Assembly (NCBI GenBank): GCA_944367535.1
Contig: CALVWQ010000012.1
Coordinates: 1 to 51,479 of the forward strand
Length of the DNA: 51,479 nt
Direction of reading: 5' to 3'
Source of the DNA: an uncultured Clostridia bacterium
GTDB taxonomy: Bacteria; Bacillota; Clostridia; Christensenellales; Borkfalkiaceae
Shown here in pieces: positions 333 through 48,139 of this stretch. The notes under the pieces were generated by a model. That model had not been told where the DNA came from. It ran no database searches and saw nothing but the letters and a program-made list of their open reading frames with translations. A program made the translations under genes and the position numbers. Numbering within the stretch: the first letter of the stretch is position 1; every line of letters starts with the position of its first letter.

Positions 333-1268
333 TCAATATTCATACGTTGGCATATATTTTGCAATCAAATATCTTATACCCATAACAAAAGGCACACCTA
401 CAATAGAAAAACTCACGCCGAGAGTAGCGGCTGTGGTAAGATATCCGCCCTTGACCTGCTCGTTGACAAGATAAGGTATAGTATAAGTTCTGTCGTCGGG
501 CAGACCTCCCGTCAGTAACATAGGCTGCAAAAAAACCGTAAAGACTGACGTTATACTCAAAATAAACAGTGTACCCAACGTAGAAGATATCAAAGGCAGG
601 TGCATACTCCACAATTCCCTGAAAAATCCTATACCGTCAAGTCTTGTGCTCTCTATAATTTCTATCGGAACTCTTGCCATTGCCCCGGTTACAAGAACGA
701 CATTGTATCCGATACCCGCCCACAGGCAATATAACAGTATCATGGGAAATGCAGTATTGACAGAAGCAAACCACCCGTTTGCCGGAATTATTTTTTCAAT
801 TCCCAATGCTCTTAAAATCGGGTTTATGAAGCCTATCGTAGAGTCAAAAGAGAACTTGAACACCATGGTAAGCACAACCATGGAAATTATCGACGGTAAG
901 AAAAATATGATTCTAAATACCGCATAGCCCGGTACTTTTTTATACAGTATATATGCACATATAATTGATATGGGCAATAACAACACGGCATTGAACGGAA
1001 AAAACAAAAACGAATTCAATAAGGCATATTGCAGTGTTTTAGACGGATAACCCTGCAAATTTTTTATCATACTCCTGTAATTTTCCAAGCCGTAAAACAC
1101 ATATTCTCCGGAAAAAACATCAAACCTCTGAAACGTCAGCGCAATTGTATCGATATTTATATAAACCCAGAAAATAATAAAATGTATCACAGGCCACAAG
1201 AGCATTAGAAATATAAAAATATTATTTCTTTGTTTCTGATTAAGTTTAAATTTCATGATATTTCTCAT
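333..1268 (-). CDS. Carbohydrate ABC transporter permease (MalF/UgpA-type)
   Basis: Integral membrane permease of a CUT1-type sugar importer, about 311 residues with roughly six hydrophobic segments. The cytoplasmic loop VPIEIIESTRLDGIGFFREL is the EAA-type motif that docks on the ATPase. I chose the ATG at 1266-1268 because it overlaps the stop of the binding-protein gene as ATGA, a layout for coupled translation. An upstream in-frame start at 1301 would lie inside the previous gene. The usual second permease is not visible and may lie beyond the left edge. No ATPase gene is nearby, so a shared MsmX-type ATPase is likely (inference). The substrate cannot be read from the sequence. Confidence 0.9.
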   Translation of the reverse strand: MRNIMKFKLNQKQRNNIFIFLMLLWPVIHFIIFWVYINIDTIALTFQRFDVFSGEYVFYGLENYRSMIKNLQGYPSKTLQYALLNSFLFFPFNAVLLLPISIICAYILYKKVPGYAVFRIIFFLPSIISMVVLTMVFKFSFDSTIGFINPILRALGIEKIIPANGWFASVNTAFPMILLYCLWAGIGYNVVLVTGAMARVPIEIIESTRLDGIGFFRELWSMHLPLISSTLGTLFILSITSVFTVFLQPMLLTGGLPDDRTYTIPYLVNEQVKGGYLTTAATLGVSFSIVGVPFVMGIRYLIAKYMPTYEY

Positions 1269-2674
1269 TTCATTCCCGCCTGCACAAGCCAACTGTCCCA
1301 CTCATTTTTAACAAAAGTATATGCTTCGTTAAAGTATGTTTTAGCGGTATAGTTCGGGTCTGTACCCGTCAAGAGTTTTCTGTATATATCTCCAAGCGCC
1401 CATACGTTCGCCCTTCCGACAATCGCCAATTGATTATTTGTTATCTCACATACATTAACAGAATTATTTATAATGTTGATAATACCCTGCGTACAAGACG
1501 ATAAAGAACTTATATCGGGCATTGTGAACTCAAACGGACGGGGGCTGCCGGTCGTGAGAAGGTATTTCTGCAATTGTTCTTCCCTCAACATAAACACAAG
1601 AAATTCTTTCGCGAGCGCTTTATTTTTTGCCGCCTTCGGTATTATTGCGTAATCTCCGGCCACCGTATAGTTAACAGGAATATACTCCCCATTATTGTCT
1701 TTTCTTGCATTTTCAAGATAAGGCGTCGGCATAAGTTTCATTTCAAAATCTTCGGGAATATTCGCACGCATTTCGTTTTCCAGCCATGCCCCGCAAACTA
1801 CCATTGCGGACCTGCCGTTTATAAAATCCATCTGCATGGAAATGTGATCTTTACTCGCGCAGGCAGGTACGGAATTCTGCGGCTTTTTAACTATCAGATT
1901 TTCAAAAGCCTCGGTAGCTTCCAATAATGCCGCCATTGTAGGGCTGGTAGGATTATATACTTCTGGACTTTCAAATTTCATGAATTCTCTGTATGCGTCT
2001 GTGCCTATGAGCTGTATCCACCATGTCTGAACGAGGAAATCCCAATACGAAGTAATCGTGCCGCCCCATGAAAAAGGCGAAATGTCGTTATTAAGATTTG
2101 CGTCGTCATTGACCTCGTCGGCAACTATTTCGTCGCAAAGCGCCACAAGTTCATCGTAAGTTTCGGGCACTTCCCAGCCTTTTTCGCGGAACATTTTAGC
2201 GTTATAAAAAATTCCGGACGCTCCGCTGTTCCAAGGCAAAAGATATTGATGTTCGCCTTCGCGCGTTACATATTTACCGTATCCGACCATATAATCTTCC
2301 AGTCTTTCGCTTACGGTTACACCGTTTTCTATTTCAGTTTCATATAAGTCGTCCAACTGTTCAAGCCAACCCATTGCCGCCCATTTATGAGTTTCAAATC
2401 TCAACCCGAAAAATATATCTCTCACTTCGGTGTTTGTTTCAAGTCTGTTCTGTATATTATGTGTAATGAGCGGGTCGCCTTCCAGTTCAAATCTGACGTC
2501 AGGATGAATGTCCTGAAAATCTTCTATGGCATCTTCAAGCCATTTCCTGCCATAACCCGCTTCCGCAAAACCGATGGTGATTAAGTTGGGGTCGTAGTTC
2601 TCTCTTCTGCAACCCATAAATAATGCGCTTACCGCCATCAGAATGCACATCATTGTCGCAATAATTTTTTTCAT
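1265..2674 (-). CDS. Extracellular sugar-binding lipoprotein (ABC importer)
   Basis: Solute-binding protein of the CUT1 family, 469 residues, anchored as a lipoprotein. The signal peptide ends in the lipobox ALFMGC, so the mature protein starts at Cys22 and would be lipidated on the outer face of the membrane. The body has features of family-1 binding proteins, such as an INGRSAMVVCGAWLENEM segment followed by PKAAKNKALAKEFLVFM near the C-terminal lobe. It starts with a good ribosome-binding site (AAGGAG). It is first in an operon with the permease. Its leader carries a two-hairpin element (2709-2768) downstream of a strong promoter (2811-2839). A divergent AraC gene is the likely regulator. 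Confidence 0.92.
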   Translation of the reverse strand: MKKIIATMMCILMAVSALFMGCRRENYDPNLITIGFAEAGYGRKWLEDAIEDFQDIHPDVRFELEGDPLITHNIQNRLETNTEVRDIFFGLRFETHKWAAMGWLEQLDDLYETEIENGVTVSERLEDYMVGYGKYVTREGEHQYLLPWNSGASGIFYNAKMFREKGWEVPETYDELVALCDEIVADEVNDDANLNNDISPFSWGGTITSYWDFLVQTWWIQLIGTDAYREFMKFESPEVYNPTSPTMAALLEATEAFENLIVKKPQNSVPACASKDHISMQMDFINGRSAMVVCGAWLENEMRANIPEDFEMKLMPTPYLENARKDNNGEYIPVNYTVAGDYAIIPKAAKNKALAKEFLVFMLREEQLQKYLLTTGSPRPFEFTMPDISSLSSCTQGIINIINNSVNVCEITNNQLAIVGRANVWALGDIYRKLLTGTDPNYTAKTYFNEAYTFVKNEWDSWLVQAGMK

Positions 2675-2708: not shown

Positions 2709-2768
2709 ATACCGATAAGAGTAGTCCTGCATTAGTCTAAAGACTAATGCAGAAGGGTATACCCTTCT
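2709..2768 (-). promoter_or_regulatory. Two-hairpin leader element, copy 1
   Basis: In the transcribed (minus) sense this 60-nt block has an 18-nt palindromic hairpin (7-bp arms, UAUA loop, 2751-2768), then directly a 9-bp hairpin with a 4-nt loop (2729-2750), then 9 nt, then the box CTTATCGGTAT (2709-2719). A second block at 48014-48073 has the same parts with the same spacing but different stem sequences, so the stems covary. It lies between a promoter and the binding-protein start. A T-run on the plus-strand side (from 2767) could also let hairpin 1 terminate plus-strand transcription. Function unknown. Confidence 0.7.
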
Positions 2769-2810: not shown

Positions 2811-2839
2811 ATTATAATTTAATCACTAAATTTTGTAAA
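2811..2839 (-). promoter_or_regulatory. Promoter for the sugar ABC operon
   Basis: Reading the minus strand, TTTACA (2834-2839) and TATAAT (2811-2816) are separated by 17 bases, an almost perfect vegetative promoter. The start of transcription would fall near 2804, so the two-hairpin element becomes part of the 5' leader. Confidence 0.75.
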
Positions 2840-9141: not shown

Positions 9142-9175
9142 TTACGGCGCCCCTATGATCATAGGGGCGCCGTAA
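9142..9175. terminator. 34-nt perfect palindrome after the creatininase operon
   Basis: TTACGGCGCCCCTATGATCA continues as its exact reverse complement to 9175. The transcript would fold into a GC-rich stem of about 14-15 bp, followed by ATATTTTC. It probably ends the operon, although the U-run is weak. 9176-9284 holds nothing I can support as a gene. Confidence 0.6.
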
Positions 9176-45181: not shown

Positions 45182-45257
45182 AACGAGGTATGAACCTTCA
45201 ACTGCATAATTTAAACCTGAACGAGGTCTAAACCTTCAACTTCATAATTTAAACCTG
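45182..45257 (-). repeat. 38-bp imperfect tandem duplication at the gene end
   Basis: Copies at 45182-45219 and 45220-45257 differ at only a few positions. The period is not a multiple of three. The copy inside the gene gives GLNYEVEGLDLVQV-stop, the outer copy would encode GLNYAVEGSYLVAV in the shifted frame. Confidence 0.8.
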
Positions 45258-47817
45258 CGCCGCTTACTTTTGCTATTTTTCCTTCTGAGTCTTTTTCGAC
45301 GACAACTTCAATAGTGCAGTAATGATAATTGTTTCCGTCGTAATTGTTATGAATATACATTTCAAGATAATATGAAACGTTATCCACACCCACGGCAACC
45401 ACTCTTACGAGGAATTGTGCTCCGAGGAATTGTTCTCCGTTGAGTTCCATATTGAAGCACACTATACCGTCCGCTTTTGTCGGCACCCCCTCTTCGGACG
45501 GTATCCAGGACTTTAATGCGAGGCCATTTTCATCTTCAGTCATCAAGTAATATAACTCAGGATAATTTTCGCCCGTATTTATTTTAATAACATTTTCAAT
45601 CCCGGTATTTTTATAGGAGTATATTTTCGTGTCTTCTACCAGAATATATCCTTCATAAACTTTCGCAGAGTATTTTTTCGCGACATCATAATATGCATAT
45701 TCGAGATATTCACCTGACGGAAGAACCTGAATATCGAATCTGCAATTCTTACCTTCGTATACAAGCGTCAGAGTTTTATCTCCGACGGTGGCAAAATCTT
45801 CGTCCATGAGATTCGACAACATATCTTCGGTCAATATTATTAAATCGGAAGTGCCCCAATAGCTCTGATCCCCGAAATTTATCTCCTCGGAAAAATCTCC
45901 GCTCTTACCTGTCAGCATTTCTCTCACCGCGTCAGCGGATGTGCCCGCTTCTACTCTGAAAATGCCGTCAGAACAGCTTATCTCATATTGGAGATTATCG
46001 TCAGTATAGACAATTAAACTTACAGCAAAATATTCTTCCGGATTAAATTCGTTCTTAATAATACATTCATAAACCCCCGTTGCACAGGAATTATAATCAA
46101 ACGACAATTCCCCGTTTTTTACGTCATATAATTCGCGGATCGGACGGGTAAACATACAGTCAAGCTCGTTAATGCGATATTTTAGATAATAATCTTCCAA
46201 TGATACCGAACCGTTTCTGTTTATCTTAATATTTTCCGCATTATCATTTTCAAAGTAGACGCCTTCTTCCCTGCTGAAAAACAGACTCCCGTCCGAAAAC
46301 GAGGTATCGTAAATAGCAAAGACGGATACGCCTGTATTGCTTCCTTCATACTCTATAGAGGCAGAAAATTTATAATATTGTTCCCCGCTTTCGAGACCCT
46401 TAACGGCTTTATCTAACATGCTCGGTTCATAAGTTATCATGTCCTCGGTAAGCATTATATAATCGCTGGTATTATAGTAACTTACCTGAATGTATCTTTC
46501 GGTGAGATCAAACGCACCGCTTCCCGTCTCTTTATTTACTAAATAAAGAAGACCTCTTTCAATACTTATATCGCTTATACTCATATCGTTGGGATCAATG
46601 ACCAGTACCCAAACATCTTGCCTGTATCCATCATATTCGACGGTAAATGCGTATTCTCCCGCCTGTTGGTTGTTGAATTCGCCGATTATTGTCAGCTCCG
46701 AAAAATCTATATCGACTCTTTCTCCCGTATCATAGACTACAGAAACAACAGGATTTGACCCCAGATAACATTGTCCTTCGACGTAGATTTCTTTTATTTC
46801 TCTTTGCGAAGGATCTTTTACTTGTACCGTAACCGTTTTCTCAAAACCGTCATAGCGAACCGTGAAATTATATGTCGCGGCGACTTTATTATCGAATTTG
46901 CCGCTTACGATTGTCAGCTCCGAAAATTCTATCGTATTATTTGAGCCGTCGTTATATGAAACGCTTACATAAGGATATTCGTAGAGCATACACATATTAT
47001 CGACGTAAATATCCGTCGGTTCGACAAGCCCCTCGTAGACGGCAGAAATGGTATTCATTTCCCAAACGGCTTGGGTGGTAAATTCGCTCTGTCCCTCGCC
47101 TATTCTTTCGCCGTAAGAATTAATCCAGCACACAAAAGCGTGCCCGTCCTTTTCATCGGGCGCGGTAACGGTAAACTCCTGCCCTTCGCAATAAAGCCCG
47201 TAATCAAAACCGTCTTCGAGGGTGCCGCCGTTAACCGTAATATTTATATAATATGCGTCGGCAGGCCTTTCGGTATTATAATTGAAATATGTCTGCGCGC
47301 TCGCTCCGTAAGAAAGCATGGAATACAACATATTTATGAAATTACTGTCCGAACTGCCGCCGTTAATCATGTTGTAAGCATATTGAAGCACACTGTATTT
47401 TACCGGTTGACCGTAAACGGCAGAACCGTTGTCGTCATAATACGGCAAGACATATACGTCGTCCGTCATCTGCTTTGCGCTATACTTGTCAAACATAAAG
47501 ACAGGATATGAAATTCCGTTTATTTCCTGCTCGTTATAAACGGAGAGAGTAAAATCGGGATTATCCTCGGCGGTAAAAGCCGAAGGAAGGGTCTGCCATA
47601 CGAGAAGCCGAATGTTTTCCGTATCTTCTATTCCCGAACTTCCGACCGCAAAAAGCATATATACTTCGTTTTCGAATTTAAGATTCGCATATTCGACGGA
47701 AACGGTTTTCTGATTACCGTCCCCGGTCTCCGCGCTCACGCCGACAGCGGCGCCGATACAAAGCGCGCACATGAGCGAAAAAATACATATCAGCATTATT
47801 TTTGAAACTTTTTTCAT
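45211..47817 (-). CDS. Large secreted protein with Ig-like repeats
   Basis: 868 residues, starting at the ATG at 47817 after AAAGGGAGAAAG (a longer frame from 47850 abuts the upstream small gene). A Sec signal peptide (MKKVSKIMLICIFSLMCALC, cleavage near VSAE) leads to an N-terminal domain of unknown type ending in LSYGASAQTYFNYN. A repeat resembling the Listeria-Bacteroides type follows, then two bacterial Ig-like repeats (ELTIVSGKFDNKVAATYNFT and ELTIIGEFNNQQAGEYAFTV), and further beta-rich segments. No LPxTG anchor, transmembrane tail or enzyme motif is seen. Probably a surface or adhesive protein. The C-terminus has been altered by a 38-bp duplication. Confidence 0.85.
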   Translation of the reverse strand: MKKVSKIMLICIFSLMCALCIGAAVGVSAETGDGNQKTVSVEYANLKFENEVYMLFAVGSSGIEDTENIRLLVWQTLPSAFTAEDNPDFTLSVYNEQEINGISYPVFMFDKYSAKQMTDDVYVLPYYDDNGSAVYGQPVKYSVLQYAYNMINGGSSDSNFINMLYSMLSYGASAQTYFNYNTERPADAYYINITVNGGTLEDGFDYGLYCEGQEFTVTAPDEKDGHAFVCWINSYGERIGEGQSEFTTQAVWEMNTISAVYEGLVEPTDIYVDNMCMLYEYPYVSVSYNDGSNNTIEFSELTIVSGKFDNKVAATYNFTVRYDGFEKTVTVQVKDPSQREIKEIYVEGQCYLGSNPVVSVVYDTGERVDIDFSELTIIGEFNNQQAGEYAFTVEYDGYRQDVWVLVIDPNDMSISDISIERGLLYLVNKETGSGAFDLTERYIQVSYYNTSDYIMLTEDMITYEPSMLDKAVKGLESGEQYYKFSASIEYEGSNTGVSVFAIYDTSFSDGSLFFSREEGVYFENDNAENIKINRNGSVSLEDYYLKYRINELDCMFTRPIRELYDVKNGELSFDYNSCATGVYECIIKNEFNPEEYFAVSLIVYTDDNLQYEISCSDGIFRVEAGTSADAVREMLTGKSGDFSEEINFGDQSYWGTSDLIILTEDMLSNLMDEDFATVGDKTLTLVYEGKNCRFDIQVLPSGEYLEYAYYDVAKKYSAKVYEGYILVEDTKIYSYKNTGIENVIKINTGENYPELYYLMTEDENGLALKSWIPSEEGVPTKADGIVCFNMELNGEQFLGAQFLVRVVAVGVDNVSYYLEMYIHNNYDGNNYHYCTIEVVVEKDSEGKIAKVSGAGLNYEVEGLDLVQV

Positions 47818-47850
47818 AATCTTTCTCCCTTTTCCGATTTGGTCTTTCAA

Positions 47851-47979
47851 TCAGATTTTGTCCCATTCGCCCTGATTGTCCGTATCGTCGCTGCCGAGCG
47901 GCGAAGCCAAGACCGCGTCCTCTGCCGCAAAAAAGACAGTTTCCGCAAAAACCCTCTCATAACTTTTCTTTCCCTGCAT
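47851..47979 (-). CDS. Small ORF (42 residues) in the leader of the surface protein gene
   Basis: ATG at 47979 preceded by the strong ribosome-binding site AAGGAGGGT. The 42-residue product reads MQGKKSYERVFAETVF... and ends GSDDTDNQGEWDKI. It has a basic start, an AEDAVLAS centre and an acidic tail, with no signal peptide. The pattern resembles short uncharacterised proteins I associate with leaders of secreted-protein genes in Clostridia, but I cannot confirm the family. It lies 33 bases before the large secreted protein gene and downstream of the two-hairpin element. It is too short for the usual gene callers. Confidence 0.7.
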   Translation of the reverse strand: MQGKKSYERVFAETVFFAAEDAVLASPLGSDDTDNQGEWDKI

Positions 47980-48013: not shown

Positions 48014-48073
48014 ATGCCGATAAGACTTATCAGTCATCAGATGCAAATCTGATGACTAAGGGTATACCCTTAG
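48014..48073 (-). promoter_or_regulatory. Two-hairpin leader element, copy 2
   Basis: Transcript order: hairpin CUAAGGG-UAUA-CCCUUAG (48056-48073), hairpin with 9-bp arms and UUGC loop (48034-48055), nine bases, then CTTATCGGCAT (48014-48024). Lengths equal copy 1 exactly. It follows a consensus promoter and precedes the 42-residue ORF by 34 bases. No T-run follows either hairpin, so it is not a simple terminator. The gap 47980-48301 otherwise holds the promoter and the terminator of the next gene. Confidence 0.7.
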
Positions 48074-48110: not shown

Positions 48111-48139
48111 ATTATATAATAATATTATCTGCGCGTCAA
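48111..48139 (-). promoter_or_regulatory. Promoter of the small ORF/surface protein operon
   Basis: Minus-strand TTGACG (48134-48139), 17-base spacer, TATAAT (48111-48116). It reads directly into the two-hairpin element. Confidence 0.8.

What the first reader, a model, noticed from the sequence alone, without database searches (positions are those of the whole stretch)
2709..2768. New two-hairpin leader element with covarying stems and an invariant CTTATCGG box
Two 60-nt blocks (2709-2768 and 48014-48073) share exact architecture in transcript sense: 7-bp hairpin with UAUA loop, 9-bp hairpin with 4-nt loop, 9-nt link, then CTTATCGGNAT. The invariant parts are AAGGGTATACCCTT and CTTATCGG. The outer pairs of hairpin 1 and nearly all of hairpin 2 differ in sequence while keeping pairing, which favours an RNA structure over a plain DNA repeat. 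Both sit between a strong promoter and a gene for an exported protein. I know no riboswitch or operator with this form. A palindromic DNA operator at AAGGGTATACCCTT is the main alternative.
Basis: partly seen in the sequence, partly recalled or inferred. Interest (0 to 1): 0.8.

Follow-up and report, generated by a model that had tools for sequence, protein, structure and literature searches.

The report
Palindrome-plus-hairpin leader of nutrient-uptake genes
A short stretch of self-complementary sequence, repeated with ever-changing letters but nearly unbroken pairing, sits just ahead of many nutrient-uptake and surface-protein genes in a group of uncultured bacteria and probably controls how strongly they are expressed.

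Summary
Both window copies exist and belong to a large leader-element family with no Rfam match. A covariance model hit 97 of 398 genomes of the same family; real copies outside it were few. Architecture: a perfect palindrome P (AAARGG-NWWN'-CCYTTT), directly followed by a hairpin with varying arms, then usually 3-5 nt, then a box YTTAWCGGMA. A same-strand gene follows within 330 nt in 98 of 99, against 27 of 99 in the reverse direction and 337 of 990 at random places. In a sample these are mostly solute-binding proteins, glycoside hydrolases, regulators and surface proteins.

The 'covarying RNA stems' reading is partly right. Pairing is almost purely Watson-Crick (3 G-T in 1178 pairs; 0 in 411), and P is a perfect palindrome through its centre in 99 of 102 hits, where an RNA hairpin needs only a loop. 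So complementarity is also kept at DNA level, perhaps by replication template switching, or P pairs between molecules.

ANTAR and LoaP do not fit. Most likely it is a transcribed 5'-leader element acting after initiation; the factor that reads it is unknown.

The parts
2811..2839 (-). promoter-like site of copy 1 (TTTACA-17-TATAAT)
   Evidence: consensus scan, 11 of 12 matches
2751..2768 (-). copy 1, perfect palindrome P: AGAAGGGTATACCCTTCT
   Evidence: sequence; parse
2727..2752 (-). copy 1, hairpin 2: CTGCATTAGTC-TTTA-GACTAATGCAG, overlapping P by 2 nt
   Evidence: sequence; fold
2710..2719 (-). copy 1, box CTTATCGGTA
   Evidence: sequence; family motif
1265..2674 (-). gene behind copy 1: extracellular solute-binding protein (SBP_bac_1)
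   Evidence: frame, Pfam
48111..48139 (-). promoter-like site of copy 2 (TTGACG-17-TATAAT)
   Evidence: consensus scan, 11 of 12 matches
48056..48073 (-). copy 2, perfect palindrome P: CTAAGGGTATACCCTTAG
   Evidence: sequence; parse
48032..48057 (-). copy 2, hairpin 2: AGTCATCAGAT-TTGC-ATCTGATGACT
   Evidence: sequence; fold
48015..48024 (-). copy 2, box CTTATCGGCA
   Evidence: sequence; family motif
45211..47850 (-). frame behind copy 2: exported protein with Big_3 domains; likely start ATG near 47817
   Evidence: frame, Pfam, start by SD rule

Best explanation
This is a cis-acting 5'-leader element that is transcribed with the gene and acts after transcription has started. In the RNA, palindrome P and the adjacent hairpin fold into two neighbouring stems, and the conserved box YTTAWCGGMA just behind them is left single-stranded and bound by a trans-acting factor that sets stability, translation or read-through of the mRNA. 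The target genes are mostly for nutrient capture, the cell surface and their regulators, so it would work as a post-initiation regulon signal. Shown: architecture, spread, orientation, closeness to the start codon, gene association, pairing kept while letters change. Inferred: that the leader is transcribed (promoter-like sites upstream and short distance to the start codon only), that RNA is the active form, that the box is the contact site, and the direction of the effect. The near lack of G-U pairs and the symmetric centre would come from arm copying at DNA level (replication template switching), with selection keeping structure and place.
For: Covariation: 98.0% of cells paired, 69 of 254 with both sides changed, 0 of 500 shuffles reach this; the alignment was fitted to the structure, so the counts lean towards it. 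Spread: 97 of 398 family genomes. Orientation: a gene in front in 98 of 99, reverse 27 of 99, random places 337 of 990. Distance from hairpin 2 to start codon: median 54 nt, 44 of 98 within 50 nt, leaving little room for a promoter in between. Promoter scores upstream above shuffles, n=96, p=3e-10. Box score >=4 behind hairpin 2 in 67 of 99 against 31 of 297 control windows (the matrix was trained on these elements). Orthologous genes keep the element with changed arms.
Against: G-U pairs nearly absent and P symmetric through its centre in 99 of 102: more than RNA needs. Hairpin 2 is not more stable as the sense RNA than as the antisense RNA (p=0.34). The box is poor in about a third of elements. 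Of 6 orthologous leaders 2 have no recognisable element. No transcript data.
Confidence: 0.47

Rival explanations
1. DNA-level element: the perfect dyad P (and perhaps the cruciform-capable hairpin 2) is bound or extruded as DNA, for example by a dimeric protein or as a supercoil-sensitive structure between promoter and gene.
For: P is a spacer-free palindrome in 99 of 102 hits with a fixed register of A/G and C/T blocks around the centre. Pairing is nearly pure Watson-Crick: 1172 of 1178. Terminator-like hairpins in the same loci show 5 G-T and 3 A-C in 267 pairs (only 22 controls).
Against: Position 2 of each half has no letter preference yet is complementary, which a dimeric protein reading fixed half-sites would not impose. 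P always came with hairpin 2 in the genus search. The orientation is fixed although dyads have none. Symmetry is not absolute: L087 and L183 have ordinary loops.
Confidence: 0.22
2. Attenuator: P is a weak intrinsic terminator or pause hairpin followed by a T-run, with read-through set by a factor.
For: P typically ends CCC(C/T)TTT and hairpin 2 begins in the T-run. Copy 1 is terminator-like on the plus strand.
Against: Neither window copy was found as a terminator on the transcript strand. T-runs are short or broken in win1, win2 and C13. LoaP, one known read-through factor, is not over its cut-off in any of 40 genomes.
Confidence: 0.17
3. A non-autonomous mobile hairpin (REP- or IS200/IS605-like) that has accumulated in leaders.
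For: Tandem duplications in 5 of 99 loci. Presence and absence between orthologues. Y1 transposase family in 10 of 20 genomes chosen for several hits against 3 of 20 without a hit (not matched for genome size, some hits are fragments).
Against: Fixed orientation and place before genes. Arms are only slightly more alike within a genome (0.47, 47 pairs) than between (0.40). 10 of the 20 rich genomes have no Y1 hit. No match of copy 1 in phages or plasmids.
Confidence: 0.08

Closest known systems
ANTAR target RNA (PMC3369931, abstract seen)
   Same: Two neighbouring small hairpins in a leader.
   Different: ANTAR hairpins have highly conserved terminal loop residues; here hairpin-2 loops vary in length (3-8) and letters.
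LoaP-responsive leader hairpin (PMC12691694, abstract seen)
   Same: Small hairpin in a 5' leader of a Bacillota operon.
   Different: LoaP over the curated cut-off in 0 of 40 genomes; targets there are antibiotic operons.
Stabilising 5' stem-loops (aprE, ompA leaders; recalled, search listing only)
   Same: Stem-loops near the 5' end before genes for exported proteins.
   Different: Not a recurring family with a perfect palindrome and a shared box, as far as I recall.
Palindromic candidate structured RNAs of human microbiomes (PMC8040213, passages seen)
   Same: Inverted repeats found on both strands of one region; most were predicted terminators.
   Different: The passages describe mostly Bacteroidetes examples; its tables were not readable here, so overlap cannot be excluded.
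Template switching maintaining RNA hairpins (PMC8794818, abstract and opening text seen)
   Same: A mutation process that makes perfect stems and multi-base compensatory changes at once.
   Different: A mutational mechanism, not an element; not shown there for this family, and not tested on single events here.

Membership tests
Known Rfam family | match at the gathering score | tested here: not met
   0 matches in the window; only sub-threshold matches in the two regions
ANTAR target RNA | two hairpins with conserved terminal loop residues | tested here: not met
   hairpin-2 loops 3-8 nt, letters not conserved
LoaP antitermination | LoaP protein encoded in the genome | tested here: not met
   0 of 40 over cut-off; the weaker hits are of the strength seen in control genomes
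Riboswitch | conserved ligand-binding core | tested here: inconclusive
   outside P the arms and loops are not conserved in sequence, only the 10-nt box is; ligand binding itself was not tested
REP / Y1-mobilised repeat | Y1 transposase present | tested here: inconclusive
   10 of 20 element-rich genomes, 3 of 20 without hits
Intrinsic terminator / attenuator | GC stem followed by a U-run on the transcript strand | tested here: inconclusive
   not found for the two window copies on that strand; many relatives have TTT or more after the C-run
Nus/boxA antitermination leader | box shared with rRNA leaders of the same genomes | not testable with these tools
   the 16S start pattern gave 0 of 201 genomes; the resemblance to boxA is recalled

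The most novel reading that the evidence does not exclude
A regulatory element in which complementarity itself, not sequence, is inherited. The arms are rewritten by template switching, so that both P (no loop) and hairpin 2 stay nearly letter-perfect while the sequence drifts freely. P's full self-complementarity is then used between molecules, two leader RNAs of the same gene pairing with each other, so that expression responds to the amount of that mRNA. This would be a new kind of leader control.
Probability: 0.15. Interest if true: 0.9.

Novelty: new variant of a known kind. Interest (0 to 1): 0.7.

Why it matters
It is a widespread control-like element, with no Rfam match, in uncultured bacteria (the one named pattern hit is titled an uncultured Eubacteriales assembly), placed before nutrient-capture and surface genes. 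Its pairing is more perfect than RNA selection should need. That makes the old question of how compensatory changes arise (stepwise through G-U, or at once by template switching) directly testable on more than a hundred natural copies. Finding the factor that reads the box would define a post-initiation regulon in these bacteria.

Tried and rejected
LoaP: 0 of 40 over cut-off. ANTAR: loops not conserved. Rfam: nothing at the gathering scores. Reversed sigma-D-like reading of the box (GCCGATAA on the other strand, motif recalled): dropped because the TTAACGG half of the family does not fit. Box as a -35 site: no -10-like signal in the 25 nt shown. BoxA resemblance (recalled): not testable. Genome-specific arm code: suspected from G156 and genus g10, but mean arm identity within genomes is only 0.47 against 0.40. 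Strand bias of hairpin-2 stability: none; loop TTC 10 against GAA 0 is a post-hoc oddity. Operator of the LacI-like gene: a separate dyad (TTACATTA..TAATGTA) lies upstream over the promoter-like region, judged by eye. The four other genomes hit by the first pattern appear to lie in coding sequence, judged by eye. In one search I first took L042, L044 and L049 for coding hits because I had displayed the wrong part; the scan showed real elements. Of R1's hits, those at L054 and at L051:1501 look like plain terminators. Hits without a palindrome of half 5 or more: L074, L087, L052 of 102; 7 of 39 further hits lack one of half 7 or more, among them three of the four order-level hits outside f1 and f18. 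The two other own-genome hits, at 22.1 and 18.8 bits, show no palindrome (L197, L198). My crude gene finder gave 68 same-strand, 12 opposite, 2 none and 17 set aside; the SD-based finder with controls replaced it.

Full report
Observation. Both copies are present on the minus strand as described. Each fold beats 200 of 200 shuffles. The same genome has three more loci: C8 (single), and C13 and C1 (each two perfect tandem units 40 and 37 bp apart; the C13 contig ends inside the array). The five downstream genes are two solute-binding proteins, a Big_3 protein, a DUF4838/GH67N protein and a GH32 protein. Rfam gives nothing at its thresholds.

Spread. A pattern search hit 6 of 151 genomes; besides the own genome only G002 is a true element, the others appear to lie in coding DNA. 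In the genus, 4 of 44 genomes have AGGGTATACCCT; of 12 sites, 11 look non-coding and all 11 carry hairpin 2. A covariance model from six copies (R1) hit 16 of 401 relatives, a few of the hits false. A second model from 16 structure-fitted copies (R2) hit 97 of 398 genomes of the family, 9 of 18 genera. In an order-wide sample 13 of 297 were hit; outside the family the convincing ones are two genomes of f18 and one of f29 (L205). The filters were strict, so these are lower bounds. The only exact hit among named genomes is an uncultured Eubacteriales assembly, whose contig length equals that of G002's.

Anatomy. I parsed 102 hits from the lists (second-strand and second-unit duplicates left out; not every listed hit was fetched). 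99 of 102 have a spacer-free perfect palindrome of at least 10 bp. Central four bases: GTAC 25, CATG 19, TATA 18, ATAT 17, CGCG 5, CTAG 5, six others 10 together. From these counts I calculate about 17% self-complementary centres if halves were dealt at random. Aligned on the centre, P reads AAARGG-N-W|W-N'-CCYTTT; the second position has no letter preference. Hairpin 2 starts in the T-run of P. Its arms vary; loops are 3-8 nt, 6 of 50 even-length loops self-complementary. Scored without favouring G-U, hairpin 2 has 1172 Watson-Crick, 3 G-T, 1 A-C and 2 other pairs, and 93 of 99 are flawless. In 39 further, mostly weaker hits fetched as a check on selection, 32 have a palindrome of half 7 or more; of 37 with a clear hairpin, 35 are flawless, with 409 Watson-Crick and 2 other pairs and no G-T. 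Terminator-like hairpins in the same loci under the same scoring: 257 Watson-Crick, 5 G-T, 3 A-C, 2 other, 14 of 22 flawless; a looser control gave 28 of 63 flawless. The controls are small and the model itself prefers pairs, so the size of the difference is uncertain.

Box. Behind hairpin 2 a motif YTTAWCGGMA was fitted; 71 of 99 best sites begin 3-5 nt after the hairpin. With that matrix, scores of 4 or more occur in 67 of 99 against 31 of 297 windows further downstream; the matrix was trained on the same elements.

Place. With an SD-and-length rule, 98 of 99 elements have a gene starting on the same strand within 330 nt. The same rule finds 27 of 99 in the reverse direction and 337 of 990 at random places; with a 150-residue minimum 95, 21 and 279. 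Distance to the start: median 54 nt, 44 of 98 within 50 nt. Upstream promoter scores exceed shuffles (96 elements, p=3e-10), at variable distance. 74 of 98 products have a hydrophobic N-terminus against 27 of 98 control genes; with the longer minimum 75 of 95 against 82 of 279 at random places. In a random 40 of the 98 genes I count, over Pfam's cut-offs, 9 solute-binding proteins, 1 ABC permease, 6 glycoside-hydrolase-type proteins, 3 pilin-type N_methyl proteins, 5 regulators or sensors (two LacI, AraC, response regulator, GHKL kinase), 4 other surface or secreted proteins, 2 others and 10 without a match.

Evolution. Two related genes (72% over 87 residues; L071, L146) share the hairpin-2 arms but differ in loop and in P centre, CATG against CTAG, both symmetric. 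A LacI-like gene found in 6 of 71 genomes of one genus keeps the element in four, each with different central six bases, two of them sharing arm sequence, and has no recognisable element in two (for L157 my script missed the gene start, and its element is the one of L049). A published mechanism fits: template switching in replication can create perfect stems and repair them in single events (PMC8794818, abstract and opening text seen). I did not test single events.

Mechanism. Position close to the start codon, fixed orientation and the box favour a leader read by a factor. The near lack of G-U and the symmetric centre show that complementarity is also kept in a way RNA folding alone does not explain. 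I weigh RNA leader 0.47, DNA-level element 0.22, attenuator 0.17, mobile repeat 0.08; the rest is unassigned.

Known systems. ANTAR and LoaP each fail a tested feature; riboswitch, terminator and Y1-repeat tests are inconclusive. The literature searches listed no title that describes this element; only open-licence papers are held, listings were capped, and supplementary tables could not be read.

Noticed in passing
window 47851-47979 (-): A 42-residue frame (MQGKKSYERVFAETVFFAAEDAVLASPLGSDDTDNQGEWDKI) with a strong SD follows copy 2 directly, before the Big_3 protein.
   Followed up: partly
window 9142-9175: A 34-bp perfect palindrome (starts TTACGGCGCC) of another kind, without the rest of the element.
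   Followed up: no
L017 5324-5377 (G000:C13 end): The contig ends inside a tandem array of the element, so the true copy number there is unknown.
   Followed up: no
L158, L159, L160, L161, L162, upstream of the LacI-like gene: A TTACATTA..TAATGTA dyad over the promoter-like region is shared by orthologues with and without the leader element, like an autoregulatory operator.
   Followed up: no
L018 3670-3730 (-): Behind the C8 copy the box starts a further inverted repeat TTATCGGTA...TACCGATAA.
   Followed up: no
   Followed up: partly
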